The notes under the pieces: model-generated
What the model was told of the DNA's origin: nothing
Database searches by the model: none
Seen by the model: only the letters and a program-made list of their open reading frames with translations
Translations under genes and position numbers: made by a program
Assembly (NCBI RefSeq): GCF_032854445.1
Contig: NC_088295.1
Coordinates: 66,879,249-66,943,248 of the forward strand
DNA from: Liolophura sinensis
Taxonomy: Eukaryota; Mollusca; Polyplacophora; Chitonida; Chitonidae
Direction of reading: 5' to 3'
DNA length: 64,000 nucleotides
Part shown: piece by piece, positions 31,901 to 62,807 of the stretch
Layout of the letters: each line of letters starts with the position of its first letter
Numbering within the stretch: position 1 is the first letter of the stretch

Positions 31901-34051
31901 TTTCGGGTTTCTGGCAATGTATATTATCTGCAAAACACTATTCATACATCACTTGAGAGTAATTTTGATTTTTTTTTTTCTTTTTTGCCTAGGCTGAAAA
32001 ACGAAAAGGGAAACTTAATCTAATTTTTCTCTTGTATAAACAAGGAAGTTTTCGCTTTTTCTTCGCTTTTTCTTTCGCTTTTTCTTCTACATAAACTTTC
32101 AAAATATATTCAGCGAGCATTTTGTCATCACCAAAATAGTACAGTACCTTCTAGATAATAGAAACTGTAAATTTTCCAGTCTAGGCTGCATGCAATTGAT
32201 TCCACAGCATAATATTTGCCAGAATGTGGCAGTGTTAGGGAGAATGTACTGGACTTTTCTCCATACATACAAGAGCACACAATCAACCATTTGTTACCAC
32301 CAAGGCCCTAACAACAATGGAAGTAGGGAGAATCTACTGGACTTTCCTCCATACATACAAGAGCACACAGTCAACCATTTGTTACCACCAAGGCCCTAAC
32401 AACAATGGAAGTAGGGAGAATCTACTGGACTTTTCTCCATACATACAAGAGCACACAATCAACCATTTATTACCACCAAGGGCCTGACAATAATGGAAGT
32501 AGGGAGAATCTACTGAACTTTCTCCATACATACACACTGTCCATAAAACTTCACTTACAGAGGACAATATCTGTACAAACTTGAGGAAAGCCATGTGTAA
32601 AACTTCACCTTAGGTTTCTTGACATGAATATCACCTGGTAACAGGTGGAAGGGGAGATGAGATTTTATCAGCCGCGGTGAGGGGTACTTTGCTATGGCCT
32701 CGTACCCAGGGTACTGGAACTCTAGGTATGGGAAGCGATCATCTAACGGGGCAGACCCAGCCCCCTCAAAATCCAGGCCTGTCTGTATCAGGTAAATGAT
32801 CTCCTGGCTCCAGGTTGTTCCTGAAAGTAAATTTGATAATAAGAAAATTATCACTAATATTAGATGTCTGAAATTATTCCAAAATATTTAAGATAGTTGG
32901 AAATTATGGGGTGGGGGGGGGGGGTATTTTTTATTCCAAAATATTTAAGATAGTTGGAAATTATGGGGGGGGGATGGGTATTTTTTATTCCAAAATATTA
33001 AAAATAGTCATAAATTATGGGGGGGGGGGGGCACTGCATAAAAAGTGGATAAAACCCAGATGTTGTAAAGCTGTTCAAAATTGAGAAATATTCACAGAGT
33101 AATATATGTCTTGCTAGTTTCTTGCCTTGCAGATTGCCATAATGCTGGTTCACTGACTAAGGTACCAAGCTACAGACACTGGACAGGACATCTGCCAAGC
33201 ATTGCAGTAGTCTCCCCTTAATGTTCCTGTTGTGAACTGTCATATTGTTAAATAATTTGAAAGCTCATAATTACAGTCTACCTAATGTAAGCAGATCAAG
33301 GCTGCTCTATCGATCATGCCAACATTATTGACGTATATATTTTTTTGAAGTATTATTTACATTTCGCTTATATATGACAGCAGCCAATATCATGATCAGA
33401 GAAACCTGACTGAGCCCTGGGGAAACAAGCCCATCCACAAATTCGTGCAGACCTTTTCACTTCCCCTGCATTAATGACGCGGTTATATCTGAATTACTGA
33501 CATTTAATTAACTGTATTTTATCTGGTTGGAACCGGAACATATTAAGTTCTTCCCTACCTGACCTTGGCCAGCCAACAAGCCAGACATCATCTTCTCTGA
33601 CAGCAAACCTCTCAAGTTCTTCAATATTTTGCCCCACTGTATCAAATAGGACGAAATCTTTGTATTTACAAATAAAAATTCTATGACCAAACGCAGGGAT
33701 TTTCATTTCAACAATTCCTCTTTTTTTCTTTTGGTATTTTTTAAATTCTCTCCTTATGACTGCGAAAAACATAAAAGCTCCTATAAATCCTGAAAAGTAC
33801 ACGAGCCACATTAGCCTGTTCCTTGAGGCTGCATCTGGGGTTGGGTGTTGTGCATAGCCTCTGACACTTGACACACGTTGTGGGCATGGGGGATTAACAC
33901 TGCCGTTGTTGTTGTAATGTCTGCTGTCGACCAAAAGTAGTGTGGACGATTTGCATTCTACACGGCCCAGGCAACGTTTAGAGGCCAATACAGCAGAGCT
34001 AGCGCAGAACCGTGAAGGCAAGCGCCATAACCGCGCTGACAAAGCCATCAT
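28922..34051 (-). CDS. SULT-A: cytosolic-type sulfotransferase with mitochondrial-type leader and membrane anchor; frameshift in exon 5
   Basis: Exons in order: 33559-34051, 32609-32820, 31801-31927, 30785-30879, 29899-30083, 28922-29043. The fold transfers sulfonate from PAPS to a hydroxyl or amine. Visible motifs: PAPS 5'-phosphosulfate loop WPRSGTTW (161-168, Arg replacing the usual Lys), catalytic His219 in KSHLPF, 3'-phosphate motif YIARNPKDIIVSYYHF (Arg241, Ser249), SPWW, and FIRKG-GDWKNY near the C terminus. The N terminus is unusual. Residues 1-66 are rich in Arg, Ser, Ala and Leu, have no acidic residue before 32, and end R-G-Y|A, a mitochondrial-processing-type site. A hydrophobic helix (80-99) and a lysine-rich stretch follow. 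Exon 5 changes frame near 30,020: the first frame stops after EEQVECHS, while the family sequence continues one frame over (NAIAEHCTF). One extra base would explain it. Its donor (AAAG|gtttgt) is also weak. With one base removed the protein would be about 410 aa. It is either a damaged gene or a sequence error. Confidence 0.82.
29180..29385. mobile_element. MITE-like element in SULT-A intron 5
   Basis: The left arm holds 'gactaaagtcaaaatctgaa' and the right arm 'ttttgacttcagtcagaaat' then 'ggctg', reverse-complement related. The internal 'acaattttagagcttatttt' is shared with the fragment at 26,038. Non-coding. Confidence 0.55.
29490..29770 (-). mobile_element. SINE-B copy in SULT-A intron 5
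   Basis: It is paired with the element at 31,430-31,700. Shared ordered blocks on the plus strand are 'tcttgtgg(t/c)agggtgag', 'catgc', 'catgccgaagacac'/'catgccaaagacac', 'cacccag', 'tgctgagtgcaagc'/'tctctgagtgcgaagc', 'ggcagcaa', 'tatgatc' and 'ggctttgatccg'/'gggtttgatccc'. The tRNA-like end is at the high-coordinate side, so it points to the minus strand. Confidence 0.7.
31065..31175 (-). mobile_element. SINE-A 3' fragment
   Basis: The plus strand shows 'ttgatgttttcagctgaatt', 'acatttcacttatatgatcg', 'gacattatgatggggggaaa' and 'cccacaaccatctgcagg', the reverse-complement order of the SINE-A tail. SULT-A intron 3. Confidence 0.6.
31430..31705 (-). mobile_element. SINE-B copy with tRNA-like head
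   Basis: In reverse complement it begins 'ggtggcctaatagttggagg' (box-A-like) and reaches 'cttgggatcaaacccgagtg' (box-B-like) about 50 bases on, then runs through the same body as the copy at 29,490. This is a tRNA-derived retroposon. SULT-A intron 3. Confidence 0.7.
32238..32545 (+). repeat. 88-bp tandem repeat, about 3.5 copies
   Basis: 'gggagaatctactggacttt' recurs at 32,238, 32,326, 32,414 and 32,502, exactly 88 bp apart. Units are over 90% alike by eye, so the array is recent. It lies in SULT-A intron 2. Confidence 0.9.
32870..33035 (+). repeat. ~65-bp repeat with long G-runs, three copies
   Basis: 'ccaaaatatttaagatagtt' + 'ggaaattatgggg' with a run of 7-14 G recurs three times in SULT-A intron 1, 5' of exon 2 on the minus strand. 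The G-runs are on the plus strand and could form G-quadruplexes there. Confidence 0.85.
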
Positions 34052-34494
34052 GTTGATTTTAAATGTCGAATTGAAGTAGCCGCATTGTGGAGCACGTTGT
34101 GTTACTGGTATTTCTTCTCAGTCGGGCACCCGAAGAAAACCAAGCGAGGGGGCTCCGTTCAGTCGCCTGCCTAAATAAATTCCTTGTGTACACTAAGGTC
34201 CTCATAAAGCTTGTATTTGCTTTCTTGGTTAAGTTTTTCTTTAAAATGCACAGCAAAACAGCGCAAAATCTCTTTTCATCTATTTATCTAACTTTTAGGA
34301 AATTCGTTAAGTAGACAGAAATTTTCGTTTAGAGTGGTCTGCCCCTGATTGTACTTTATTTTGGCGAGTAAGCCTAGCGCGGGGAGGATAGCTGTGTCCT
34401 ATCGAAGATGCGACTATTAGATTCAGTATCATACTGTCAACAGCTTGTGGAAGCTGTGCCTGGGTCCGTTTGGTGATCTGTCAAGCTGAATGAC
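34052..34494. promoter_or_regulatory. Shared divergent promoter region, SULT-A / acyl-CoA thioesterase
   Basis: 443 bp separate the two divergent start codons. This segment must hold both 5' untranslated regions and both core promoters unless there are further upstream exons. It is richer in CpG than its surroundings (for example 34,360-34,400). I see no TATA box. An in-frame TGA at 34,474 precedes the thioesterase Met and supports that start. Confidence 0.55.
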
Positions 34495-37400: not shown

Positions 37401-40400
37401 GATTTACTATATTTGGCACAATGACGTCCCCATGTTATTTAATCCCTTTTAAATACATTTATGTTTAGGATGAATGTACGAATAGTGTAAGTATGCTTCC
37501 CGACGTATTTTAACATCCTGATAATGAATCTGGTGTTTTTTCTCTCCTATCAAATTGCGATAAAGCGCAATTTTCCACCATATTTAGGGGTCACGTCACA
37601 GAAAACTGTTACAGCTGTAAAACTGAAAATTACTGAGTGCAAAGCACTATACATGTACTCTGTGTAAGCTGAAAATCGTTGAGCTGTGTGAAAAAAAAGA
37701 GGACATGCACGCTTTTAAATATTGCTCACAGGTTGATTTACTCCATTTGGCCCATCTACAAACTGTACTATGATATACAGTGTACTTACAATGCACTAAT
37801 GACTCCGAAGGATGTAGGCTTTCTGATTAGTTGGTTATGTATCTATACATGGACACCATTGAGGTTACCTGAAGTGATCTACATAGGCCGGCAGTACCGG
37901 TTTGAACCCCAGCATCGCTGCTTTAGAAGCTATATTTTTTATGTTTTATGGTCATAACCAGAAAACTATACAAAAAGTATAAAAATATTTCTTCTAGTAT
38001 TTCTTACTAGACAGTGTGTTTATTTAAGCATTTGGAGCAGTTTTTAGATTTGACCTACTTCTAAGCTAATTTCATTGGTCAGTTACAGCACAACTTGCAT
38101 ACCAAACAAAAGGTATAGCTAAAACAGGTACAGCAAACCACATAAACTTGCAAGTGAAATTTTGATCATCAGCTGATTTATGGAAAAAGTTGGTTTAAGC
38201 TTAATAAAATTCACAATGGCTGCTAAATCACGCACCAGGCCAAACAGTACAAAACGTCAAAAGCTGCTTCATATGTTGGCTATTAAAAATGCCAAGTTTG
38301 TTTTCTCTACCTTTTACCGGTTTGGGAGGTATTGCAATTTTACAAGCTTACTATGAACAAAATAACAAGCTTTTAAACGCATTTTACTGGCAAAACTATC
38401 AGTCGCAGCTGTGCGGTCCTACCAGTCAAAAATGAAGATATGTCGTTGATCTGTCTAGCAAACAATTTTCAGCTTCAGGGCTATTATTTGAAAAATGACA
38501 CTGAAATGAGCTATAATTGCAATTTAAAGAAAAACCATGCATCATAGGAAAAAACCATGGTTGTATTTAGCAGGCAAACTACATCTAATTGCTATCTTAT
38601 TTTTGTAAAATTCATCCACAGGTCATCACCTGACTAAAAAGACCAATAGCGAGCTTCCACATTTCGTAACTGATTTGCATAACATTTTCAATCCTGATAC
38701 CCCTAGTAGTCTTGTACATGCATATCAATTTTCTATGCAATCGGATCAGCGGTTCTGGAGAAGAAGTTTTGTTTACATTTCCGTACCGCTCCAATATGGT
38801 GGAAAAGTGGGTCCCAGGTGGGTAAAGTTTTATGCTCCAGCAGGTAGCCCGAGCAATTTTGTAATGAACATGTCTAGAAAATTAACAGCTACAATATGCA
38901 GTTTTCTCGCAAAACGAAAAAAAAACAGTTGTCAGAGAAGAAGAAAAATAATCTTGCAAGCTTGGAAACCTAACAAGCAAAGCTTGGAAACCGAATAAAG
39001 CTATTTTATTGAATTGGTATCTTAATAGAATCATATCCTTGTAGGACTGCTGTCTTGGGTAATGTCATGGAACTGCCCTCAGAGGAGAGACATGGTGTCA
39101 TTAACGGCTGATAAACCAGATGACCTTATTGACAATCCAGTACAGTTGACAGTGTCAGGTCTGAAGGCAGGGCAAAGGGTCACATGTCATGCCAGCGTGG
39201 AAGAGAACAAGAAGAGATTCAGCTCCCATGCCCATTTTCTGGCTAATCATTCAGGGGAGGTAAATCTGGAAAGCTCTGCTTCGTTGGGTGGCTCCTACAC
39301 AGGTAAACATTAACAGAGCAGATGTTACGGGCTAAAAACGGTACTAACCCCCAGTCTGAAAAATATATTGACTTGTATCATTCTTTCAATTAACTGACTT
39401 TTTCATTAACTGACTCATCTGGAAAGAAATGTTCTGGAAAGAAAAATAATAACAATTAAATGTTATCGTACTTATTAAAGTATACAACAATAACATATCA
39501 ACATATGTCCTGTCTGATCGCTCATATTAAAACAAAATAAACACATTGGCTGTTATTCCTGGGTCCCAATTTTTTTATACACCTTTTATACAATTTTTAT
39601 CATCTTTTGAAATAGAAAAAAAATACTAAGCAATGTTTTATGATGAGGTGATCGGCGAATTGTTGCTGCCACTTTGTGAACAAATTTATGCAAATTCTCT
39701 CGGTGAAGTCTGGCACTGTTTAGCCCTGTTACCTTTGGAACATATGAAGCATACATTGTTTTTTATCCATTCTTCTCTTAGAATCTGACGTAGGGGATTC
39801 TCTGACAATGCTATAAGACAGCCCAGAAGTTGAAGATCCCATGATCACACCTGCGTGGGCGAAGCCTATGTTTGTGGCTCCTTCAGTTGTATAGAAAAAA
39901 CATCATGTAAACTCTACAGAATTTGACCACCTGGAAAGCTGAAAACTATACAAATCAACTGAATACACTATTGCTGATGGTGATTGAAAAATTAAAGGAC
40001 AATTTTCTTTACCCACGTTGACCGTTACTATGGAGATCATTTGACCTCTAGCTCTTCGGCCGTCTTACAGAATGCTGTGTTCTCCAGGAAGATGCTCATC
40101 CCTTGAGTTTATCAGTGAGGGCCTCTGTTCAAATCTAGCTCTTGCTGGATCAACTCTTCATCTTTAAGTCGGTAGAATTGTCAGGTAGACTCTCCATGAA
40201 GATTCCTGACATCCATAAATCTGCTGAAACATGAATTATTCTTGATTGTTACATAAACATGAACATATGAATCAAGGCAAACATGACACAGTGAAGTGTC
40301 TAAATCTCACCAGAATGAGCTGACAGCTTTGCGTTAAAAATATAAACTGTACACTTCTGACAATCCAGTAAGTACGTGTAAACAAAATATGCATGGATGA

Positions 40401-41138
40401 GTAGATGATGTGTTCCTACTTGTGGCCTAGTGAGCAGCATGTTTGAACAGCACAATGACTCCGGAGCCTCTGACTAATGTGATCAGTGTGAGTTCAAGCC
40501 CAGCTCATTGTGTCTTCCTCTCTGAGCATAAGTCGGAAGGTCTTCAGCAACCTGCAAATGGTTGTGGCTTTTTATCAGTCTGCGTGGTTTCCTTCCACCA
40601 TAATGCTGGCCGCTGCTGTATATGTGAAAACCCCAGACAAATAAATAAATAAATAAATATATATGTATGTGTCATAGGAGTAAATTTGTTCATGTTTCTA
40701 AGGGGTTGATGGCATGGGATTATTTTGGAGCATGTCTCAGAGCCCTGGTCAGCAGTCTGGGTTACGGCTAGCTAAGAAGGATGTGACCACTCCTCTGGTT
40801 ATCCACCTCTCCTTGTACGATGGCCACCAGACAGCTGCTGACCTCTATGGTACTGACCAACTCCAGCCTCTGGCCATGCAGACGATTAACAGATGGTACC
40901 TTAGTCACGATGTCACTCGATCAGAAGTCCGTCATGGAAACATCCGAGGAACACTGTTCACTCCAGCAGGTTAGGGATAAGGTGGAAGCTGTGTGGGGTA
41001 TTGGAGTATACCTACTGAACTGTCATTACATAGATACTTATATATCAGTGATGACTGTAAATACTGTTTACTATTTTTACTATTCTTTTTATTCTGTTCA
41101 CATCAAACTAGTAAAACCATTATCATGTTTATCTTCTA

Positions 41139-41202
<64 letters not shown>

Positions 41203-44200
41203 TTATATAGTATATATAGTATATAATATACACCACTAAATGGAAGAAACGAAAATACAGCCAATGTGTTATTTATTCATTTGTACTTTGCAGAAACACT
41301 ATTCCATGATCTATAGTGGTGTCTCAAGTTCATTGTGAGTAGTCTAAGTTAATTGGTAAGAGTTACATGTAACATTTAACATGTAATTTGCCGTGAACAT
41401 GCAGGTTTCTTCACTGTTCCAGGTACTGGGCCTTTCAAAGGTGTCATTGATATGTTTGGTACAGCTGGGGGTATCATGGAATTCAGAGCAGCTTTGTTAG
41501 CATCCAGGGGCTTCATTGTGTTGTCTCTACCATACTTCAACTACCAGGACCTGCCCAAGTCCCTCGTAGATGTGGACTTCTCCTACTTCCTGGTAATTAT
41601 TATCTCTGCCAAGGATTTATTTTTTAAAATTTATTTATTTATTAAAATATTTCACCAAGGCGGCCGGCATTATGGTGGGAGGAAAGCCGGCTGAGCCGGG
41701 GGGAAATCTGCACCAAGCAGGAGGGAAATCTGCACCAAGCAGGAGGGAAATCTGCACCAAGCAGGGGGGAAATCTGCACCAAGCAGGAGGGAAATCTGCA
41801 CCAAGCAGGAGGGAAATCTACGCCAAGCAGGGGGGAAATCTGCACCCAAGCAGGTTATGGTTTTCCATCACATATTTGTCCATCTGTTAGCAACTTTATG
41901 CAAGAAGTTATGAATGTATTTTGATGAAAACATGTGCCCGTCCTTTCAGTTTTTCAGGGGAATCTGAATCTGGGATGCAGGGAATGCAGTGACTTTCAAA
42001 TTATATCTTTGTATAATTCAAGACTTTATTTGTTTAATATACATGTATATTCTATCATTCATAGAATAGTATGTTGAAAGGTCTCAGCAACCTGCGGATT
42101 GTCATGGGTTTCCCCCAGACTTTGCCCAGTTTCCTCTCACCATAATGCTGGCTGCCATTGTATGAGTGAAATATTTTTAGTATGCTGTAAAACCCCAATC
42201 AAATAAATAAATAAACATATCAAATAGTAATGCTCATATTTGTATGTGTGTGAAGAAACAAATGTAGCAGGGACTAGTCACTTTCAAATTAGTTGTATGT
42301 TTGGAGTTATCTCCCTGTATAATCCAACATTTTTTCATTTGGGTAATATACTTTCCATCAGTCATAATCTGCTGCAGAAATTCAAATTGTGGTGCTCTTA
42401 CTTGTGAGTGTGGAAGGGAGGAATGAAAATATTATACAGAATAAGAAACTCTTTGGTCGCTAAAATTAAAAATACTAGTAGTCCAGCCGTATCATGTGAC
42501 TAGTCAAAAATGTCAGGAAACTTTTGTTTACATTAAATTACCGATCAGCTGACCCGCCCTGTTTTGGATGTACAAAGATGACACCATTTTCCATCAGGAA
42601 CTTCTTCAGTTCACACACATTTAACTTCTCCATTGTCTCCATTGTTTTAGGCACCCATTTTATTGTAAATGTAATCAAAAATAGTTGCCAAACCTTTCTT
42701 AGAGGCCACATGATGCAGTAGAACTTTTTACCTTCAGTGACAAAAGAGTGCAATCTTGAATCTCCCACTGTTGAGATAATAATAGGTAATGCCAGTCACC
42801 TAATGACTCTGCCCTTTCAATAAATGATCAACTCATTTTGATGATTGGGCAATGGACTGACAACACTGTCACCTTTCATCTTAGACTCAGTCTAGTCTTT
42901 CAAAACAAGTCTCTGTTTTATCACTCAGTGATAGACTGGTACTGATGGCTTGATGGTGTACTCAATCCAGTCATTCAGTTCAAGACATTTGGTTTTCTTC
43001 CTCAGGAAGCAGTGAACTGGTTCTCTGCGCTGCCCAAGGTTCACCCAGGAGGTGTTGGAGTTGTGGGTGTGTCCATGGGTGGGGAGATCGGGCTGTGGAT
43101 GGCTGTGCATTGTCCACAGGTAAGAACACCAACAAGACTTTTAAAGTGAGAGTTTGAACTTTAACAAGAATTTTGTAATAATGCCATGAAGGATTAAAAC
43201 AGTTCTCTGTAATAAACTAAAAATTACTATTTACAATTTAAGTTCTACATAAACTTTTTTGAAGTTAGGACAAAGTTTCAATCAAGTAGAAGACAGTTTT
43301 ATGGTCGTAGGGCCACGACTTACATGTAGGTTTGATTTCGAATTCTATTGGAGGAACTGTGTGCTGTAAGTTTTAGCAAATATAACTCTTGCATGTGAAG
43401 CATTATTGTTTTCTGTGATACATTTAAGGGGCTAGATTTCACTACATGCTTGTTTTTGTGAATAACTAAATATATATGTACATGTATATAAAATACATAC
43501 ACCAGCCAGAGTAGTAAAGTTTTACATTACATTCTTGTCCAAGTCATTTCGCATATATTTGTAACCTGCACAAAGTGCTGTATGTATCGAACTCAAGTTT
43601 TGTGTCCACGTGGAGAATATTAATGACCTGAGCAGGGGGTGTTGGGGGGTGTGGAGGGGGGGGGGGGGGCAACGGCATGAGAGGCATGTTCCATCGGTGG
43701 TACTCTGTGTGCTTTATATACATTATACCGGAAATTACAAAATTCACGACTTTTGTACTTCTCCTGCTGGCAAGCTCTTTGGTTGCTTTGCCAAATCCAA
43801 GTTGTTCTATCAACTACAAGTCATGTTTGTGTGACATTGCGTAGCTGTGCTTTGTTTTCCCTTGCAGATATCAGCCGTTGTTAATATCAGTGGAAACCCC
43901 TTCCTGGGCTTATATCCCCTCAAGTTTGGGTCCAAAGAACTACCTGGTGTGGGGTAGGTCGATAAAACAAGTTATATCTGTGCTGTCATTATGATAACTC
44001 GGGTATGCTTTGAATGCACATGTGAAAAGGGTTTAGAGAATGTTGAACTGAAAGCAAAACACTTAATTTTTTTGCCTTTCTTTCTAAAGCATGTAAATGG
44101 CTTTTTGTCTGTTCAACCATTTTGTTTAACCACTAATATGTCATTCTCTTAGTGAATGACAAATGTTTCATCTAAATCATGAATTGCCCTTCTTGTCTGT

Positions 44201-47200
44201 CATCAGGTATGACTTTTCCAAGCTGACATCATCAGAGGAGGGAATGGCTTTTCGACCAGGACTGCCAACAGTATTAACAGACAAAAGCTTCTATGCACCT
44301 GTGAGTTTTTGTTACAACAAACACAAATTAACATATTGTCTTGCGCACAGGTAAAACCATTATGTGAATGGTCACAACTGAAAGACAGACACAGACAAAT
44401 GGAAACAGCAACTTATAGAGCTTCTTGTCTCAATTAAAAATCCGGTGCTCCCTTTCGTTTGAACCTACAGCATCCTATCTAAAATACTACACAACGACTT
44501 TTAATTCATGCCTTGTAGTTTGTGTACGTCAACAGATTGCCATAATCTGACCCATTGGGAAACTGAAAATGTGATATCCAGACAGTGCTATCAAGACCCT
44601 AATGGTGGAAGAATGAGTGCACTCTCATTTGAATACACACTCTATGAACTGTTTAGTAAATGCGTGTAAATACAATCTTATGATGAAATAAATCTGTTTC
44701 AGTTTGTTTATTGTATACATTAATTCATTAAGAGCAAAGTGTATCCTTCAGTCATCTCATCCTCTAATCATGAAGGTATATATACATACAAATTTATACC
44801 TGCAACCTCTATAAATCAAGAAACCAAAGTTTATCTCTATTGGTAATGTTGTGGTAACTCCATTTTTTAGATGTGCTGAAAGCTCTGTAAATTTACAATT
44901 GATTTCAGTTGATATTAGTGTATCCCCTTCAGCAATCTACATGTCCATACAAAGTGCTAATGGAGTTAGGGAATAACAACCACATCAACCCTGTGCAGCC
45001 TCCTTTTACATATGGTTTGATATTTTTTCAGCCTCAAAAGTGTGGGGCCCAAGAGGTGATACACTTAGCAGACAACAGACACATGAGCGCTGTGGAACTT
45101 CAGTAAACTCACACTTGATTTGCTATTATTTTTATCAGATTCAGAAGTCAAAAGCCAAAGTGTTGATACAGTTTGGAGATGATGACCAAATGAACCCTGT
45201 GGAGCCTCAATACAACTACCTAGAGTGGTTACCTGAGAGTAAACGAGAGGACGTAGAACTGTGTGTGTACCCTCAGACAGGTCATCTTATAGAGCCTTCG
45301 TACAGCCCATTCTGCAGGGCTTCCTTCCACATACTCGTCAGTAAGTTTGGGTAGGGGATGTAAACCTGTGTGTGTACCCTCAGACAGGTCACCTTAGAGA
45401 GCCTCTGTACAGCCCATTCTGCAGGGCCTCATTCCACATACTCGTCAGTAAGTTTGGGTAGGGAATGTAAAGCTGTGTGTGTACCCTCAGACAGGTCACC
45501 TTATAGAGCCTCCGTACAGCCCATTCTGCAGGGCCTCCTTCCACATACTCGTCAGTAAGTTTGGGTAGGGGATGTAAAGCTGTGTGTGTACCCTCAGACA
45601 GGTCACCTTAGAGAGCCTCTGTACAGCCCATTCTGCAGGGCCTCCTTCCACATACTCGTCAGTAAGTTTGGGTAGGGAATGTAAAGCTGTGTGTGTACCC
45701 TCAGACAGGTCACCTTAGAGAGCCTCTGTACAGCCCATTCTGCAGGGTCTCCTTCCACATACTCGTCAGTAAGTTTGGGTAGGGGATGTAAAGCTGTGTG
45801 TGTAACCTCAGACAGGTCACCTTAGAGAGCCTCTGTACAGCCCATTCTGCAGGGCCTCATTCCACATACTCGTCAGTAAGTTTGGGTAGGGGATGTAAAG
45901 CTGTGTGTGTACCCTCAGACAGGTCACCTTAGAGAGCCTCCGTACAGCCCATTCTGCAGGGCCTCCTTCCACATACTCGTCAGTAAGTTTGGGTAGGGAA
46001 TGTAAAGCTGTGTGTGTACCCTCAGACAGGTCACCTTAGAGAGCCTCCGAATAGCCCATTCTGCAGGGCCTACTTCCACATACTCGTCAGTAAGTTTGGG
46101 TAGGGGATGTAAACCTGTGTGTGTACCCTCAGACAGGTCACCTTAGAGAGCCTCCGTACAGCCCATTCTGCAGGGCCTCCTTCCACATACTCGTCAGTAA
46201 GTTTGGGTAGGGAATGTAAAGCTGTGTGTGTACCCTAAGACAGGTCACCTTAGAGAGCCTCCGTACAGCCCATTCTGCAGGGCCTCCTTCCACATACTCG
46301 TCAGTAAGTTTGGGTAGGGAATGTAAAGCTGTGTGTGTACCCTCAGACAGGTCACCTTAGAGAGCCTCCGTACAGCCCATTCTGCAGGGCCTCATTCCAC
46401 ATACTCGTCAGTAAGTTTGGGTAGGGGATGTAAAGCTGTGTGTGTAACCTCAGACAGGTCACCTTAGAGAGCCTCCGTACAGCCCATTCTGCAGGGCCTC
46501 CTTCCACATACTCGTCAGTAAGTTTGGGTAGGGAATGTAAAGCTGTGTGTGTACCCTCAGACAGGTCACCTTATAGCGCCTCTGTACAGCCCATTCTGCA
46601 GGGCCTCCTTCCACATACTCTTCAGTACGTTTGAGGACGGAATGCAGAACTTCTTGTGTAGCTTACCCTCAGACAGATTACCCTGTATAGCTTCCATTGC
46701 TCTCCTACTGTATGTGGGAAGGTCTTCCAGCAACCTGCAGATGGTTGTGGGTATCCCCCGGGCTCTGCCCGGTTTCCTAGCTCTCACCATAATACTCGCA
46801 GCTGTCATATAAGTGAAATATTCTTGAGTAAGGGATAAACTACCAATCAGATGAATAAATAAATTTATAGTCTCCGTACAGCCCATTTTGCAGTAAGTTT
46901 AGGAGAAATGGTGATGGCGGAAGAAAATAAATTGATAATCAGATGGCAGGGTTGCCTTGGTCATAGAAAAACTGGAATAGTCATTAGTAAATGTTACAGC
47001 CAGGATTTAGAGACACTCTCTAGTCTGTCTTAATCCCAGGTTACAGTCCTAAATTGTCAGTAATGTTCTTAATGTTTTTTCACTGAGTAAGCATATGTGT
47101 ATATTCTCTTGTGGGCTATGTAATGTACTAATGTTACAACCATGGGTGGAATTTTTTTTTTTATTTTTTGTGTGTGTGTGTGTGTTTATCTAGTCTGATG

Positions 47201-47828
47201 GCAAAACATCTGAGCTACATGTGATTTAAAAGTGAAATACATGTTCTTCTTATTCATTTCGTATAGTAGAATTATTGTTACATTTATAACAGAGGGGCCT
47301 CTGTGGCTTAGTTGGTTAGCGCGCTAGCACAGCGTAATGACCCAGGAGTCTGTCACCAATACAGTCGCTGTGAGTTCAAGTCCAGCGCATGCTGGCTTCT
47401 TCTCCGGCAGTACATGGGAAGGTCTGCCAGCTACCTGCGGATGTGGGTTTCCCCACAACCATCAATAATTTGACAATAATTTCCTCCCACTATAATGCTG
47501 GCTGCCGTCGTAGAAGTGAAATATTCTTGAGTACGGCATAAAACACCAATCAAAAAAATAAATAAATTTATAACAGACATAGGCCCTGTAAGTGAAAAAT
47601 TCTTGCGTGAATAGGCCTAGGCCAGGGACTTCAAACCCCAATCAGATATTAATTACATCCTGTTTTGTTTTGTTGTCTGAAGGAGACAATGTCGTGTGGG
47701 GAGGTGAAGCTAGGGCTCACTCAGCCAATCAAGTCATAGCCTGGAGGAAGCTACAAGTATTCCTGCATGAAAATGTTGGTCAAGATACAGCAACAACCAA
47801 AGACTTCAGTCATGCCAGTAGGTTATGA
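34495..47828 (+). CDS. Acyl-CoA thioesterase, ACOT1/2/4-BAAT family, mitochondrial-type leader, complete (475 aa)
   Basis: Exons: 34495-34585, 39045-39302, 40703-40969, 41423-41592, 43006-43119, 43868-43953, 44207-44300, 45139-45340, 47683-47828; all GT-AG, phases consistent, 1,428 nt with stop. The family hydrolyses acyl-CoA to fatty acid and CoA; its BAAT branch passes the acyl group to glycine or taurine. The N-terminal domain (from MVSLTADKPDDL at residue 47, 'DNPVQLTVSGLKAGQ', 'LGGSYTGVDGMGLFWSM', 'ERWY'-like NRWYL, 'RGTLFTPAG') precedes an alpha/beta hydrolase. Triad by position: Ser285 in G-V-S-M-G, Asp376 in G-D-D-D-Q, His409 in T-G-H-L-I-E-P. A serine nucleophile fits ACOTs; mammalian BAAT has cysteine. 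The first 46 residues add a leader without acidic residues before 46 (Lys5, Lys8, Arg24, 26, 29, 31), typical of mitochondrial import. Length and triad positions resemble human ACOT2 (483 aa). The first exon is assigned by reading frame across a 4.5-kb intron and is the least certain part. Confidence 0.87.
35330..35615 (+). mobile_element. Possible third SINE type (SINE-C)
   Basis: A tRNA-like opening with 'ggccactagcctgtgttatg' and box-B-like 'gtttgaatccagc', a non-coding body with 'ggtggttttctccaggctct' and 'gaagctctgggaaatcaact', and a short-repeat tail 'aaataaatgaatgaataaat'. Related pieces appear near 22,600-22,735 and 37,135-37,200. Thioesterase intron 1. Confidence 0.45.
36498..37870 (+). 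repeat. Three diverged copies of a ~320-bp unknown repeat
   Basis: Copies at about 36,498-36,830, 37,225-37,540 and 37,550-37,870. They share, in order, 'caaattgc', 'ggtcac(a/g)t(g/c)acagaaaact', 'acagctgtaaa', 'tgagtg', 'actata..tgta', 'gctgaaaatc', 'gctgt', 'ataaatgcgg/acagg', 'gatttact' and 'tttggc(a/c)ca'. The middle copy lacks its first ~60 bp. No coding frame or terminal repeats are seen, so the family is unassigned. Thioesterase intron 1. Confidence 0.65.
40425..40662 (+). mobile_element. SINE-A copy with (AAAT)n tail
   Basis: 'tgtggcctagtgagcagcat' head, 'caatgactccggagcctctg', 'gagttcaagcccagctcatt', 'cggaaggtcttcagcaacct', 'ttccttccaccataatgctg' and a clean 'aaataaataaataaat' tail. 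Thioesterase intron 2. Confidence 0.8.
41137..41196. repeat. (AT)n microsatellite
   Basis: About 28 uninterrupted AT dinucleotides in thioesterase intron 3, followed by imperfect AT-rich copies to 41,235. Confidence 0.95.
41625..41855. repeat. SINE-A fragment (minus) running into a 22-bp tandem array
   Basis: 41,625-41,700 is a reverse-strand SINE-A tail ('aaaatatttcaccaaggcgg', 'cggcattatggtgggaggaa'). From 41,701 a 22-bp unit 'gggaaatctgcaccaagcag' + 'ga' repeats seven times with almost no variation (starts 41,701, 41,723, 41,745, 41,767, 41,789, 41,811, 41,833). The array begins at the junction with the SINE 'ggggaaa' block, so it was probably seeded there. Open frames on both strands here are repeat artefacts. 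Confidence 0.85.
42068..42218 (+). mobile_element. SINE-A 3' half
   Basis: 'ggtctcagcaacctgcggat', 'tgggtttcccccagactttg', 'tttcctctcaccataatgct', 'gagtgaaatatttttagtat', 'aaaccccaatcaaataaata'. The head is missing. Thioesterase intron 4. Confidence 0.8.
44905..45006 (+). pseudogene. Decayed duplicate of thioesterase exon 8
   Basis: 'caaagtgctaatggagttag' and the following 34 bases align base for base with the start of the real exon at 45,155 ('caaagtgttgatacagtttg'). Both end in 'aaccctgtg(c/g)agcctc'. It reads K-V-L-M-E-L-G-N-N-N-H-I-N-P-V-Q-P where the real exon reads K-V-L-I-Q-F-G-D-D-D-Q-M-N-P-V-E-P. An acceptor-like 'gatttcag' lies upstream at 44,901-44,908. The catalytic Asp is replaced by Asn, and the frame runs on to a stop at about 45,104 without a donor. 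A dead or unused exon copy. Confidence 0.65.
45262..46645 (+). repeat. 107-bp x 13 tandem array made from the 3' edge of thioesterase exon 8 and its splice donor
   Basis: The block 'tctgcagggc' occurs at 45,311, 45,418, 45,525, 45,632, 45,739, 45,846, 45,953, 46,060, 46,167, 46,274, 46,381, 46,488 and 46,595, always exactly 107 bp apart. The first copy is the end of the real exon (C-V-Y-P-Q-T-G-H-L-I-E-P-S-Y-S-P). Every unit holds about 79 bp of coding exon, a donor (gtca|gtaagt, the last copy mutated) and 20-25 bp of intron. Copies differ at only a few bases. As 107 is not a multiple of three and an in-frame TAG follows the first donor, array copies cannot extend the protein. Confidence 0.95.
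46686..46868 (+). mobile_element. SINE-A fragment inserted in the last unit of the 107-bp array
   Basis: 'tatgtgggaaggtcttccag', 'aacctgcagatggttgtggg', 'ctctcaccataatactcgca', 'ataagtgaaatattcttgag' and the tail 'gaataaataaattta'. It is bracketed by 'tatag': before it the array reads 'cagacagattaccctgtatag', after it 'tagtctccgtacagcccatt'. The element therefore split a 14th repeat unit. Confidence 0.75.
47294..47565 (+). mobile_element. Full-length SINE-A with target-site duplication
   Basis: The best copy in the window. The tRNA-like head has box A 'tggcttagttgg' and box B 'gagttcaagtcc', followed by a non-coding body with 'tacatgggaaggtctgccag', 'tttcctcccactataatgct' and 'gaaatattcttgagtacggc', and an (AAAT)n tail. 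A 12-bp direct repeat, ATTTATAACAGA, flanks it at 47,282-47,293 and 47,566-47,577. It lies in the last thioesterase intron, just upstream of exon 9. Confidence 0.92.
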
Positions 47829-53754: not shown

Positions 53755-54170
53755 GGTTAACTCTGGAAACGATCTTCATCCAAAAACCTGACCGGGTTAC
53801 TCTGGGAACGCCCTTCACCCAAAAACCTGACTGGTTTACTCCGGGAACGCCCTACACGCAAAAACCTGACTGATATACTCCCTGAACGCCCTTCACCCAA
53901 AAAACCTGACTGGCATACTCCGGAACACCCTCCACCCAAAAAGCTGACTGGTTTACTCTGGGAACACCCTTCACCCAAAAAGCTGGCTGGTTTACTCCGG
54001 TAATGCCCTTCACACAAAAAAACTGACTGGCTTACTCCGGTAACGCCCTAAAGCCAAAAAACCTGACTGGTATACTCCGGGAACACCCTCCACCCAAAAA
54101 CCTGACTGGTGTACTCCGGGAACGTCCTTCACCCAAAAACCTGGCTGGTATACTCTGGGAACGCCATTCA
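53755..54170. repeat. ~40-bp minisatellite, about 10-11 copies
   Basis: The unit is 'cacccaaaaacctgactggt' + 'ttactccgggaacgccctt'. Copies are about 36-41 bp apart and 80-95% alike, with degenerate outliers continuing to about 54,370. Open frames over it on both strands are repeat artefacts. Confidence 0.9.
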
Positions 54171-54427
54171 CTCAAAGCCTCACAGATTTAGGGCTCTTCT
54201 TTCACTTACACGTGAACCTGAGTGGTGTACTCCGGGTATTCTGGTTTTCTTTCCCTTAAACCTGACTGGATTCCTCCACCCATTAGCCTGACTGCGTTTA
54301 CCCAAGTTTCCTCTACTCATAAATATTATTTGTTTACTCTGGTATCCGTAAACCAGACTGTTTTACTCTGTGCATTCCGGTTTCTCCTTCCATAAAAATT
54401 ACCTCCATGGAATTGGTGAAAAATCTT

Positions 54428-56483: not shown

Positions 56484-59400
56484 TCACAGTTCGTCACAAA
56501 AACTAAGGCCCGTGTCCCCAAGTTTTTCCCGCACTAATTCATCGACCTTCTCACTGAGATCCTTAGTGAAATAATTCTTCCAGTCACCCACTTTGCCTGA
56601 CAGGAAGAGAAAAAACATCGTGTGAAGTCTCAAGTGATTTTAGTTGCATGCTACAAATGGTGTGAAATACTGCAGGTCCATGAATAGGAGTTGTGAACAA
56701 CTTATTGATCCAGTGAACAGCTTATTGATCGACTAAACAGCTTATTGATTTAGTGAACAGCTTATTGATCCACTAAACAGCTTATTGATCCAGTGAACAG
56801 TTTATTGATCCAGTGAACAGTTTATTGATCCAGTGAACAGCTTATTGATCCACTAAACAACTTAATGATCCAGTGAACAATTTATTGATTCCGTGAACAG
56901 CCTACTGATCTAGTGAACAGCTTAACATAAAATTAAGCCTGGTAACTCTGGCGAAATTCATTTCGACGATGTCACAGCTTTTTGATCCACTAAACAGCTT
57001 ATCGATCTGGTGAACATCCAGCTTATTCATCCAGTGAACAGTTTATTGGTCCAGTGAACAGCTTACTGATTCAGGGAACATCTTATTGATCCCGCGAACA
57101 TCTTATTGATCCCGTGAACATCTTATTGATCCCGTGAACATCTTATTGATCCCGTGAACATTTCATTGATTCTGTGAACAGCCTACTGATCTAGTGAACA
57201 GCTTAACATAAAATTAAGCCTGGTAACTCTGGCGAAATTCATTTCGACGATGTCAGTGCTTCGACTTTAATTAACTCATTTATAAAATGAGTGTGATTTA
57301 TAAAATTAGTTACATGTATCTTACCTAATAGCTCAAAATAGTCTACGTGTAAGCGAGACCATACATTACATTCTTCCACCCGCCACACATGATCACCTAA
57401 TGAGCACCTTTATATTTATTTATTAATTTGATTGCTGTTTTACACCGTAATCAAGAATATTTCACTTATATAACGGCGACCAGCTTTATGGTGGGAGGAA
57501 ACCGGGCAGAGCCCGGGAGAAACGGACGACCATCCACAAGTTGATGGCTGACCCTACCACGTGCGACCGGAGAGGAAACCAGCATGGACTGAACTTGAAG
57601 CCACAGCGACCACATTGGTGGAAGGCTTCTTTGTCATTGGTGGAAGGCTTCTTTGCACCGTGCTGGGTGCTAACCCCCTCGGTCACGGGGAACCCCAACA
57701 CCTTCAAAGAAACTATTTACACCAGGAAGGGTTTTCAACGCACTCACAAGGCATTATGCAATTGACATAAAGTGACTAATTTTACAGTTGAGATCTACAT
57801 TATTTAGCGAACTTAATCGCAACCAAGACATCAAATGGATTTGACGTTAGCCCGCTAATTAGGAACTTACCTTTGCGGATGAAGTCGTTGTTTTGTGTAA
57901 AGCGTATGTCATCCCACCACTTATGGTTGACTTTAACGTTTTTCTTCATGCTGTCAAAGCTACAGTGACCCACTATAGTTTGAATCTGGTCTTCAGACAG
58001 GGGTTTGCCTAAAAACTTGGACAGTTTTTTAACGGTACCTTCCAAATCCTGTAAAACAAAATGAAATAACGTTTTAAATAGGTACAAAACAGTTACTGTG
58101 TAGGCGAGAAAGTGTGCTTTTGAAGCTCTGACTTCAACATCAACATTACATCTGTTTTTCACACGGTCGATTTTCACGACTAAACCAAGCGATGGCATAA
58201 TAGCGCGCGGCGATGGAACGATGGGACGAAGCGATGATGTGACAGCGTGTGGCGCTAAACGATCGAACGAAGCGACGACACGATACCACAAAAAGATGAC
58301 ACGATACTGCTAGCATGGCTCCATAGCCTTGCACTAATCGTTCCATTGTTTTGCAGTATCATGTCATCGTTTGTACTGTCGAGCCATCGCCTCATTCCAT
58401 CGACGGGCGATGGTTCGATGATGGCCTTAACCAGCTTCAGTATAGCTCGTCCACTTTGATGTAGCGCACGATAATTGCTTGATGGATCAGTCTGAACGAA
58501 CAAGATGACTTCCTGTCCGTACCAAGTTTGACTTTACCGGTATTATGTACAAAGGTAATTTGATGGACACTTCCTTCCGACAAGGAAATCGAATCACTTC
58601 CGGTCACCACCCTGACAATTTACTTTGAGGTGTGTAAATCGATGAACATCACCTGCCGACCTGGAAAGTTTACTAATAATTTGTAGTCTTTCACTATCGG
58701 AGAAACCTTTCAACAAGGTTCTGCGTGTTTTCGCTTTTTCCATGACAACACCGTGTTTAATCGGACCGGATAGCCATGTCGCTAGTCATGACCTTCCGTT
58801 CACAGTAGACACAGATAAAACTGATACTTAAGCAACAATTCCGCGCAGTTTGTTTTTTTTTTTGGGGGGGGGGGGCCTTTTAGATATTTCCGTTATAGGA
58901 TAAAGCGTGGACGTTAAAAAGCGACAAACCCTCATCAGCACGATATTTAATGCAGTCGTAGAATTGTTCTTAATAGTGTATTTATTGAAAATTGATCCCA
59001 GGATATACCTTAACACACTTTGGATATTTATTTCTAAAGGCCTACCTGTTGCATTTCTTCATACTTCAGGATGAGTATATTACTGCGATGTCTATTATCC
59101 CAGAACTCTTTAACGTGTCGCCACCAAGGCGAAAAAACATCTAAAACGAAATGGTACGAATTAGTAACATTATATCACATGATAGTTATGGTTGGAGTGT
59201 TACTGAGCATAAAACGTTATTTAGCAATAGCCGATAGCTTAAGAATAATGTCGGTTATTCTTTCTTCAAATGTTTTTCAAAAAATATGGCATGAACGATG
59301 ATTTATGTAACATGGATACACATAGGTAACATAATACTAAATTAAATATAATAGACGCATGGATCGATGGTACCCGTTATATGTTTTCATCTCACGTGTC

Positions 59401-62400
59401 ATTGTGATTATTTCGTACTCAAGGTTGTGTTGAATTCTAAGATTTGATACTCACACTTATTCTCGAAAAACAGCTGACAGAAATCATCAAATGTGCCCGC
59501 ATAGGGTAACGAGAGACATTTGAAGAAGTTATAGTTGGACACAATTACATCTTTGAAATTCCTCATCACATAAATAATCTGCAACAAAGAAATTTCTGCA
59601 TATACAAGAGCTCTTATTGACCGGTATTATCTAATATTACAACATATTTTCCACAAAGAAGCCTTCCAATCAGCATGCATTGCACAGTTATCAAAGTTAT
59701 CAAACATTATCGTCGAATTGGTTGGTTTTCTTGTGCAACTTCGAATTCTACCTTTAAAACAACGAAACGTTTTGGCTGTGGATGGTATTATGCTTAAATT
59801 ACGATATTAAAGTATTTCACTGGTCATCGACTATACGCGTGATTCCCGTTCACAGCGATATAACTGATCTGTTTAATATGGTGTACTTAATAACGAACAC
59901 GTGCATGTGGTATTACGCAGTCACATACAAGACTAAACACAATGCGACGTAACACATTGGAGTGCAAGTCACATACAATATTTATCACATACATATGCTC
60001 AATTATTTTGGAGTCACGTAGCAGAGCAAGAGAATATTAAAGTGAATTGCAGTACCCACAGAATATGGAAAGAATGATCATAAAGATTGCTGTCACCGGG
60101 AAGAGCAAATGTATATATAGGTATTGCAGATGATCTGTCTTTGTGGATTCTGTGGGATGTAGATCGAACCATTATTTTAATACATGTAACTACACCTTAT
60201 ACCTTTGCGTTCTTCTGATGAATATCTCTGGGTAAAAGATGGTATGGTAGATGTGTCTTGATGAGCCTAGGTGAGGGTAGTCGGGACACCTTGTACTGTC
60301 CTATGACAGGGGACTCCAGGTATGGGAAACGGTCACTCAAGAACTTAGCCCGTGCCTTCTCCACATTGGCATCATTTGCCACCAGGTACACGATCTCTTG
60401 TGTCCACGTCGTACCTGTGTACGCAACGAAAACAAAACCCATTCCAAACAGCAGACGAATCTTGCTTATTCATGTGGTTGCTATTGTGGTATTATTGCAT
60501 ATACTAGGTGTATGTCTCAATACGCCACGCCATGGACTGTTCGACACTTCAATAATTTAACACGTATTTTTGTTAGCGTCAGAAAGGCTTTTACTGGGAG
60601 TGACATTGTATTTATTTGATTGGTGTTTTGTGGCGTACTTAAGAATATTCCAGCATTATGTTGGGAGGAAACAGGGGGCAGAACTCAGGGGAAACCCACG
60701 ACCATCCGCAGGTTGCTGCTGAGTGACATTGTAATATTTGAAGTTGAAATCTTTAATACTAGACACCCGAGATAGATGTAACTAGCCGGGGCAATCTTCC
60801 ACCATATCTGGTTATCTTTCCAAAAAAAGTGCACTTACTGATCCAGTCATAATAAAATCCTAATAAATCACTGCAAATATGGTTGAAGAACATTCGATGT
60901 TCAGTTCTTAATAAAATGAAGAGTTTACAGTCATGGGTAGTCTACTCCCTGCCTGTCGGTATTGGCACATTTGATAAATGACCAGAATGGCGGAATTCAA
61001 CATAAATGAATACTGATGTGCAACAAATTTAGAGCAAATGTTGAACAATAATAGTAAACAGTTTTCCCCCCGATACTATAAAAACAGTTAAATAACTTGC
61101 ATAAACAGATATTTATTTCGCACCTATCTATATATTTACACTATTTCTACAATGTGTTTGTACTTTTGTGCGCATTTACCATTTTGTTCAATGTATCAGT
61201 GTTGAATGCTGAATGTTTTAATCTCATGTTATCCATTCGGTTACTGGGCTATAACTGTCTGATGAGTTTGGAGATATCAAGATAAATAAATAAATAAATA
61301 AACCGTCGTTAATGAGCTCTTATCTGTATCAAGTGATAAATGAAATGATAATACCGCTAAGTTGAAAGACCTTTCACTGTGTGCTATAGTGCTGACCCGA
61401 TTGCGCAGAGCCTGTAGTACCATTGTACCATTGTACTTAACAATGTCATTTCTGAGTCACAGAGGAATTAATGGATATGCCTTTGGGAAAATTATTATTG
61501 AACAATGGTAACTCACAAGTAAAATGTGTGTGTCAGTACTTGGCTTTCGTATACATCACCGCTTGTACTGAGATAAATCATTGTTTGTGATGTGTAGCAG
61601 GAGTGTGATAATTTATTAATATATTCAGGTCAAGGTCATGAATTGGCATATTGTGTGATACATAACTATTATTATTATTATTTTCTCGATGGTATTAGTT
61701 TATTGTTTATCAACACACTATACGACACATAACATTGTGCGGCCAATGTTAAGAAATACTTGTACAAGTATACAGCACCTTTCAGTATCAGAGTGGTATG
61801 GTAACTCACGGTTTTATACAGCTGATTTTGTGCTATTTCCATATGTAGATTCTGCAAGTCATACAAGCTGGTTATGACTTGGAATAGGACTCTATACCAG
61901 TGTCAACCTACACGTGCCATAAATATGACCATGGTTGATGTCGTATGGAAACTTATTCATTTGTTACCTATGCCCCTGGATTCAGGACATATCAAGGTAT
62001 ATCGTTAGGCTTGTGCAGTTTTAGAGGCCATTTGGGTGATGTTTTCTAAACGTTTAGTGGACGGGTCACAAGTGTAACACGAGTGTTGTCGACCTATACC
62101 GTGCTGTCACCAAACCCCTACCAACACTGGGTTCTACATCGGGTTTGAACCCGCATGTGCTTCATGGCTTGAAAGTCTTCCACCTTAACAACTTGGCCAC
62201 GACCCGATCCAGTATCTCAGGTTGAGATATTTACTGATGTCTAAGTTTGTTTTTTAAGATGGATACGATTTCTTCTTTTACCTTAATTACTATTCCTGAA
62301 ACTTACCTGAACGTGGGAAACTGGCAACAAATACATCATCGCTCTTAACTTCCATGTTCTCCGCTGCTTTCAAACTGGGAAGAAAGGTCATGTGAATGGC

Positions 62401-62790
62401 AGTGTTTTTGTACTTGACGAACGGGAACAGTTTTGAGGCCCAGACACAGAAGTGAGGTATCTGGTACGGAACAGCGCCTTTCTTCCTCAGAATGCTGTGA
62501 ACGATTCCCAAAGCGATGGCAAAAACAGCGACGATTGCTCCTAGAACCAATGCGATGCTGTACACAGGGATCCAATCAAGACAAGAGTGTTGTTCCAAAG
62601 TTAAACCCGCTGTGGAGTCCACCCTGGGGTCCATTTCCACTGTCATTGTGAGGGTGGTCTGAGTGAGACTCCGGGAACAGTTCGTTATCGCTGGTGGTCT
62701 ACTAACAGGTAGGGAGCACTGAGCACTCCACCCCAGGGACATGGCAAGCTCCTCTCCCCAGCTTAACGAGGAGTCCAAGCGTGATTCCAT
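56484..62790 (-). CDS. SULT-B: membrane-anchored cytosolic-type sulfotransferase, 401 aa
   Basis: Exons: 62307-62790, 60203-60414, 59455-59578, 59046-59140, 57871-58048, 56484-56596; all GT-AG and in phase, 1,206 nt with stop. Exon borders and lengths (212, 124, 95, 178, 113) match SULT-A (212, 127, 95, 185, 122), so the two are paralogues. Motifs: phosphosulfate loop FPRSGTTW (158-165, Arg for Lys), catalytic His216 in KTHLPY, 3'-phosphate motif [17 protein letters not shown] (Arg238 and Ser246 kept; Pro and Tyr of the usual RNPKD and SYYHF changed), FSPWW, FIRKG at about 361-365 and GDWKNYF. About 110 residues precede the usual SULT start and include one strong hydrophobic helix (about 73-99) followed by RKKG, so the catalytic domain should lie on the cytosolic side. 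Unlike SULT-A, the N terminus is acidic and serine/threonine-rich, with no mitochondrial-type leader. An acceptor at 62,808-62,810 implies an upstream, probably untranslated exon. Substrate unknown. Confidence 0.87.
56690..57190. repeat. 20-bp minisatellite in the last intron of SULT-B
   Basis: More than 20 imperfect copies of 'ccagtgaacagcttattgat', head to tail without spacers. A 74-bp non-repeat segment beginning 'cctactgatctagtgaacag' lies within it at 56,901-56,974 and again at 57,182-57,255, so a 281-bp block was itself duplicated. Confidence 0.9.
57412..57695 (-). mobile_element. SINE-A copy
   Basis: 'gattgctgttttacaccgta', 'atcaagaatatttcacttat', 'tttatggtgggaggaaaccg', 'ggcagagcccgggagaaacg' and 'cagcgaccacattggtggaa' in reverse orientation. 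The 'ttggtggaaggcttcttt' block is duplicated near the head. SULT-B intron 5. Confidence 0.8.
58140..58430. repeat. CGATG-rich inverted repeat (foldback)
   Basis: Simple CGATG/ACGA-rich DNA with a hairpin: 'gatgacacgatactgc' at 58,295-58,310 pairs with 'gcagtatcatgtcatc' at 58,353-58,368 (one mismatch, 42-bp loop). Outer CGATGGAA-type arms also pair imperfectly. It lies in SULT-B intron 4, just 5' of exon 5. Minus-strand open frames over it are artefacts. Confidence 0.6.
60608..60725 (-). mobile_element. SINE-A fragment
   Basis: 'tatttgattggtgttttgtg', 'gcgtacttaagaatattcca', 'ttgggaggaaacagggggca' and 'cccacgaccatccgcaggtt' in reverse orientation, with an internal deletion. SULT-B intron 1. 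Confidence 0.75.
62128..62207 (-). mobile_element. tRNA-Ser-like SINE head or tRNA pseudogene
   Basis: In reverse complement 'ggtcgtggccaagttgttaa' + 'ggtgg' resembles the 5' half of tRNA-Ser, and 'gcgggttcaaacccg' is a good TPsiC arm and box B. The anticodon stem does not pair well and the acceptor ends do not match, so it is not a working tRNA. A similar box-B piece lies near 54,918-54,945. SULT-B intron 1. Confidence 0.5.
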
Positions 62791-62807
62791 ACCATACAGG
62801 ACATTGA

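What the first reader, a model, noticed from the sequence alone, without database searches (positions are those of the whole stretch)
45262..46645. A coding-exon end and its splice donor amplified 13 times at an exact 107-bp period
Thioesterase exon 8 carries the catalytic Asp and His. Its last ~79 bp, the donor and ~25 bp of intron are copied 12 more times in the following intron. The period never varies and divergence is a few bases per unit, so the array is young or kept uniform. Eleven or more copies keep a consensus gtaagt donor, giving the spliceosome many equal choices. Using any donor beyond the first adds an in-frame TAG four codons after the true exon end (V-S-K-F-G-stop). The product would lack the last ~50 residues but keep the triad.
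Basis: seen in the sequence. Interest (0 to 1): 0.85.

Follow-up and report, generated by a model that had tools for sequence, protein, structure and literature searches.

The report
Splice-donor minisatellite in a thioesterase gene
The end of one protein-coding piece of an animal enzyme gene, together with its splicing signal, has been copied about a dozen times into the stretch that follows it; the repeat is real and was found only in this gene, but similar repeats are known in human genes, and it is probably mostly harmless with a small leak of faulty transcripts.

Summary
The array is real: 13 units at exactly 107 bp, 45259-46644, each the last 82 nt of a coding exon plus 25 nt of intron. 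A genome search with one unit gave 13 matches, all here. The gene is an intact ACOT/BAAT-type acyl-CoA thioesterase (429 aa, 8 coding exons in my model; the array exon is the 7th). Twelve of 13 donors read GTAAGT. The array is not simply young: a decayed 14th unit is split by a SINE 11.5% off its consensus, while units 2-12 differ by 0-7 bases. New here: the acceptor half of the same exon is also duplicated upstream (two decayed copies, the nearer at a lag of 107 bp). Closest known: human donor-junction VNTRs in CBS (31 bp, 16-21 units) and ABCA7 (25 bp; one-unit retention about 2%). Best reading: a junction-born minisatellite, first donor dominant, small unproductive leak. Donor use and copy-number variation could not be tested.

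The parts
45259..46644 (+). 13-unit array, period 107; unit 1 is the real exon end and donor
45139..45340 (+). coding exon 7 (202 nt), real donor after 45340
45366..46644 (+). units 2-13, in the intron; units 2-12 keep GTAAGT, unit 13 GTACGT
46655..46695 (+). decayed unit 14, left piece
   Evidence: score 39 against shuffle maximum 28
46697..46865 (+). SINE-like element splitting unit 14, 11.5% off a consensus of 20 copies
46869..46893 (+). decayed unit 14, right piece
   Evidence: score 42 against shuffle maximum 28
44884..45003 (+). relic A: decayed copy of the acceptor half of exon 7
   Evidence: score 76 against shuffle maximum 35
45008..45101 (+). relic B: decayed copy of the acceptor half, lag 107 to the exon
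   Evidence: score 58 against shuffle maximum 29; best of 100 lags is 107
39092..47828 (+). host gene, coding exons 39092-39302, 40703-40969, 41423-41592, 43006-43119, 43868-43953, 44207-44300, 45139-45340, 47683-47828

Best explanation
A minisatellite born at a splice junction. A tandem duplication with one end inside exon 7 and the other 25 nt into the next intron copied the exon end with its donor; later unequal exchange or slippage raised it to at least 14 units and keeps the middle uniform, while the real exon copy and the far end diverge. The spliceosome mostly uses the first donor; a small fraction slips to a later unit, reads S-K-F-G-stop, and is destroyed by nonsense-mediated decay. 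The array is thus mainly tolerated intron sequence that may lower enzyme output slightly. Shown: array, no match elsewhere, intact gene, stop position, uniform middle next to an old SINE-split end. Inferred: duplication mechanism, donor choice, decay.
For: Array and period; 13 of 13 genome matches here; intact 429-aa gene; all 12 downstream donors give the same 385-aa product, stop 93-1,270 nt before the last junction. No sign of coding constraint in the copies: 9 of 82 exon-derived and 2 of 25 intron-derived sites vary in units 2-12, codon positions 1/2/3 being 2/4/3, and two copies hold an in-frame TAA. Old edge, uniform centre. Unit 2 has the inner-array G where units 1, 3 and 13 keep T, pointing to exchange or conversion. 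Precedents: ABCA7 one-unit retention 2+-1%, not length-dependent, stop-containing forms raised by cycloheximide; CBS 31-bp exon/intron VNTR alleles of 16-21 units on wild-type chromosomes. Arrays holding GTAAGT are commonplace in this genome: 9,926 pattern matches, 17,053 for the reversed control.
Against: No RNA data: a position-blind or downstream-biased choice would make most transcripts unproductive. The real donor scores lowest of the gene's seven, so it may be easy to bypass. Both ends of this exon are duplicated, while 0 of the other 14 exon ends in the gene and 1 of 100 sampled kinase/p450 match ends pass a similar margin, which plain chance does not explain. In ABCA7 array length did change skipping of the next exon and overall expression, so a passive array cannot be assumed.
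Confidence: 0.62

Rival explanations
1. Regulated poison extension: the decoy donors are used often, in a tissue- or copy-number-dependent way, and set enzyme dosage through decay of the extended transcripts.
For: 12 near-identical donors, all giving the same early stop; the real donor is weak on its exon side; the title of the CBS VNTR report, seen in a reference list, links it to reduced enzyme activity; ABCA7 array length alters expression and next-exon skipping.
Against: Donor retention is expected at this divergence and no constraint is seen in the copies; in ABCA7 one-unit retention was rare and independent of length.
Confidence: 0.16
2. One reading: extended transcripts are stable and make a 385-aa thioesterase isoform with its triad but without the last 48 residues.
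For: The frame and stop are as stated; the Asp/His region is upstream of the stop.
Against: Stop 93-1,270 nt before the last junction predicts decay; the lost residues align along ACOT2 and to BAAT_C positions 174-205.
Confidence: 0.05
3. The array binds U1 without splicing and protects the pre-mRNA from premature polyadenylation in this intron (telescripting, recalled).
For: Twelve GTAAGT sites ahead of A-rich SINE tails in the same intron.
Against: No test made; introns are generally protected without such arrays (recalled).
Confidence: 0.04
4. Assembly artefact: the true genome has one or few units.
For: Only one assembly is held; no reads could be seen.
Against: Units carry different substitutions, only units 7 and 9 being identical; the array is 1.4 kb, short for long reads (inference; the sequencing method is not known).
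Confidence: 0.05

Closest known systems
Human ABCA7 intron-18 VNTR (PMC5954066; passages and section 21 read)
   Same: Tandem array next to a coding exon and including its donor, so that units offer GT donors; retention of one unit shifts the frame to a stop and decay
   Different: 25-bp unit starting at the GT, described as intronic; 12 to ~427 units; length acts on skipping of the next exon; here 107 bp with 82 nt of exon sequence
Human CBS 31-bp VNTR, c.1444_1467+7(16_21) (PMC2630376; passages read; Lievers 2001 not held)
   Same: By its coordinates the unit spans exon end plus intron start (24 + 7 nt), with alleles of 16-21 units: the same architecture
   Different: Shorter unit; polymorphism shown there, not testable here; nothing about copies at the exon's other end in the passages read
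CBS 844ins68 (same paper, passages)
   Same: A 68-bp duplication of an intron/exon junction giving duplicate splice sites, like the upstream relics here
   Different: One copy, at another exon; here two decayed copies at the acceptor end of the array exon
Polyubiquitin (UBC) dual-specific splice-site arrays (PMC10809524; passages read)
   Same: Tandem units each carrying a splice site, with choice among units
   Different: AGGT boundary usable as donor and acceptor, units encode monomers; here TCA|GTAAGT, 107 is not a multiple of 3, and all 12 donor extensions stop
Tandem repeats at exon-intron boundaries of human segmental-duplication genes (PMC2812944; passages read)
   Same: Repeats at exon-intron boundaries that change splicing
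   Different: Described mainly as forming novel introns in recent paralogues

Membership tests
Splice-donor-spanning VNTR (CBS, ABCA7 type) | Tandem array whose first unit contains the real donor of a coding exon | tested here: met
   Unit 1 is 45259-45365 with the donor after 45340
Splice-donor-spanning VNTR (CBS, ABCA7 type) | Later units keep a donor motif | tested here: met
   11 of 12 later units keep GTAAGT, unit 13 GTACGT
Splice-donor-spanning VNTR (CBS, ABCA7 type) | Copy number varies among individuals | not testable with these tools
   One assembly only, one locus in it
Splice-donor-spanning VNTR (CBS, ABCA7 type) | Downstream donors are used in RNA | not testable with these tools
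   No transcript data
Dispersed satellite or transposon-carried repeat | Unit found at other places in the genome | tested here: not met
   13 matches, all in the array (that search skips very common words)
Dual-specific splice-site array (UBC type) | AGGT at the real exon boundary | tested here: not met
   Boundary is TCA|GTAAGT; an AGGT inside the exon-derived part was not examined
ACOT/BAAT acyl-CoA thioesterase family (host gene) | Bile_Hydr_Trans plus BAAT_C domains over Pfam cut-offs | tested here: met
   130.8 bits (cut-off 27) and 150.7 bits (cut-off 20.9)
ACOT/BAAT acyl-CoA thioesterase family (host gene) | Thioesterase activity | not testable with these tools
   Sequence only; GVSMGGE aligns with ACOT2 GISKGGE; roles of Ser, Asp and His recalled

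The most novel reading that the evidence does not exclude
A two-sided junction array: one exon whose acceptor half and donor half have both been tandemly multiplied at about the same 107-bp spacing, so that decoy splice sites on both sides compete with the real ones and the number of units sets how much functional thioesterase mRNA is made.
Probability: 0.08. Interest if true: 0.7.

Novelty: new member of a known kind. Interest (0 to 1): 0.4.

Why it matters
It is a natural test of how the spliceosome chooses among a dozen identical donors at fixed spacing after a single acceptor. If later donors are ignored, position dominates; if they are used, array length would be an evolvable dosage control. 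The upstream relics suggest that one exon can be hit repeatedly by junction duplications.

Tried and rejected
Dispersed satellite: rejected, 13 of 13 matches are in the array.

Same process in the paralogue: the only other BAAT_C gene found lies on C6. Neither end of its matching exon (boundaries taken by eye) has a local copy: 20 and 21 against shuffle maxima of 39 and 28. Its following intron holds a 55-bp x 42 minisatellite whose unit does not look exon-derived by eye; not tested by alignment.

Seed microhomology as the cause of the 107-bp period: not supported (shuffle fractions 0.47 donor side, 0.10 acceptor side). The printed alignment does show 9 of 13 ungapped matches just before unit 1 (45246-45258 against 45353-45365), a hint that the test did not bear out.

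More relics: the unit gave none in 46894-47682 nor in 44301-45138; the acceptor half none in 44301-44883 nor 45341-47682.

Cassette micro-exons from acceptor-like sites inside the unit (copy 3): a 23-nt insert gives a stop when taken once or twice and restores the frame when taken three times (452 aa); a 64-nt insert (labelled '67-type' in the script) stops in all three tests. Nothing shows that either is used; not pursued.

Upstream acceptors: of 10 upstream YAG sites tried, 9 lead to a stop and one (45079, inside relic B, not its acceptor) would keep the frame, 449 aa.

Base-rate controls: 60 ends of 30 kinase matches (of 135 found) gave 0 hits; 40 ends of 20 p450 matches (of 97 found) gave 1, L070 5', a single diverged copy. 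These are profile-match ends, not verified splice sites, many kinase matches are long open frames, and core and flank lengths differ from those used on the gene's own exons, so the control is loose. In the gene 2 of 16 exon ends pass the margin, both of exon 7; exon 4's 3' end is 1 point over its shuffle maximum (34 against 33) and was not counted.

Literature: nine searches ran. In their listings and the passages read I saw no two-sided case and nothing on this gene; the library is open-access only and most listed papers were not opened, so this says little. PMC8239992 (passages) had nothing on donor arrays; PMC4039745 (passages) links an intronic minisatellite in C. elegans to genes with several splicing decisions, by enrichment only.

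Full report
OBSERVATION. Tandem Repeats Finder gives one array at 45259-46644, period 107, 13.0 copies, 96% matches, no indels; an independent repeat finder gives twelve spacings of exactly 107. In register, units 2-12 differ from each other by 0-7 of 107 bases, units 7 and 9 are identical, unit 1 (the real exon end) differs from the consensus at 6 positions and unit 13 at 11. The unit is 82 nt of exon plus 25 nt of intron. Twelve of 13 units have the donor TCA|GTAAGT; unit 13 has GTACGT. A search of the 609-Mb assembly with one unit returned 13 matches, all at this place (that search skips very common words).

THE GENE. Exons were placed by eye from open frames and checked for frame: eight coding exons, 39092-47828, 429 residues without an internal stop (an earlier attempt with wrong boundaries was dropped). 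The product matches human ACOT2 (3hlk, E 9.7e-88, residues 14-419) and ACOT4 (3k2i) and carries Bile_Hydr_Trans and BAAT_C well over cut-off. The array exon is the 7th (45139-45340). It holds the GDDD and PQTGH stretches that align with ACOT2; their roles as catalytic Asp and His are recalled. The only other BAAT_C gene found lies on contig C6.

WHAT THE DONORS WOULD DO. Using the donor of any of units 2-13 gives the same 385-residue product ending HILV-SKFG, with the stop 93 nt (unit 2) to 1,270 nt (unit 13) before the last exon junction.

HISTORY OF THE ARRAY. Just beyond unit 13 lies a decayed 14th unit in two pieces, 46655-46695 and 46869-46893 (scores 39 and 42, each against a shuffle maximum of 28), separated by a SINE-like element. 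One search scored 40 of 2,472 first-look candidates for this element, the window's own copy among them. Against a consensus of 20 of the others the window copy is 11.5% diverged (19 of 165); the 20 themselves range from 2.4 to 10.9%. They were taken for their similarity to the window copy, so this is only a rough age mark. The array therefore seems to predate an old insertion, while its middle is nearly uniform: concerted evolution rather than simple youth. At the position of 45290, units 1, 3 and 13 have T and units 2 and 4-12 have G, which fits spread of a derived base through the middle, with exchange or conversion into unit 2. The copies show no sign of coding constraint: 9 of 82 exon-derived against 2 of 25 intron-derived sites vary in units 2-12, codon positions 1/2/3 being 2/4/3, and two copies contain an in-frame TAA. 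Keeping the donor is unsurprising at this divergence and is not evidence of selection.

A SECOND, OLDER SET UPSTREAM. The acceptor half of the same exon is duplicated too. Relic A (44884-45003) scores 76 against a shuffle maximum of 35. Relic B (aligned 45008-45096) scores 58 against 29, and among 100 lags it matches the exon best at exactly 107 (53 of 82; next best 30). Relic A matches best at lags 206 and 99 of 200 tried (46 and 42 of 74). Relics A and B match each other only weakly (28 against a maximum of 26). Each keeps a CAG at the place of the exon's acceptor; use of either (44933, 45032) would run into a stop, although of 10 upstream YAG sites tried one other (45079) would keep the frame. 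By the same margin, of the 16 exon ends in this gene only the two of exon 7 pass; among sampled match ends elsewhere 0 of 60 kinase and 1 of 40 p450 pass, a loose control because those ends are not verified splice sites. Why both sides share a spacing near 107 is unexplained; a test for seed microhomology was not significant.

BACKGROUND. Three GTAAGT at start-to-start spacings of 86-116 bp match 9,926 times in this genome on both strands, against 17,053 for the reversed pattern (overlapping matches, not arrays). Arrays holding this motif are therefore ordinary here; what is unusual is the exon origin.

PRECEDENTS. Human ABCA7 has a 25-bp VNTR, 12 to ~427 units, whose first bases are the exon-18 donor; retention of one unit made 2+-1% of transcripts and did not depend on length, cycloheximide raised the stop-containing forms, while exon-19 skipping did rise with length (PMC5954066, passages and section 21). 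Human CBS has a 31-bp VNTR that by its coordinates spans exon end and intron start, with alleles of 16-21 units, and elsewhere a 68-bp intron/exon junction duplication (PMC2630376, passages). Boundary repeats in segmental duplications (PMC2812944, passages) and UBC dual-specific sites (PMC10809524, passages) are further relatives. The finding is a new member of a known kind, with a two-sided history that I did not see described in the passages read.

VERDICT. Most likely a junction-born minisatellite that is tolerated because the first donor wins, with a small unproductive leak. Donor choice, decay and polymorphism are inferred, not shown.

Noticed in passing
44884-45101: Two decayed tandem copies of the acceptor half of exon 7; the nearer lies at a lag of exactly 107 bp, the same as the downstream array. 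No cause for the shared spacing was found.
   Followed up: partly
L017:2052-4371: In the paralogous BAAT gene on C6 the intron after the matching exon holds a 55-bp x 42 minisatellite.
   Followed up: partly
window 22788-23269, 24942-25402, 32236-32534, 53755-54176, 56693-57205: Further minisatellites (33 x 14.6, 66 x 6.9, 88 x 3.4, 39 x 10.8, 20 x 25.6): the region is rich in arrays.
   Followed up: no
L070:662-739 and 1501-1573: A p450 match has a diverged partial copy of its start about 0.8 kb upstream.
   Followed up: partly
window 30770-34117 (-) and 57800-62859 (-): Open frames that look like sulfotransferase exons on the minus strand, by eye; not tested by family search.
   Followed up: no
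window 47295-47572: A second element of the same SINE-like family, with a tRNA-like head by eye, in the same intron as the array (repeat families D5 and D6).
   Followed up: no
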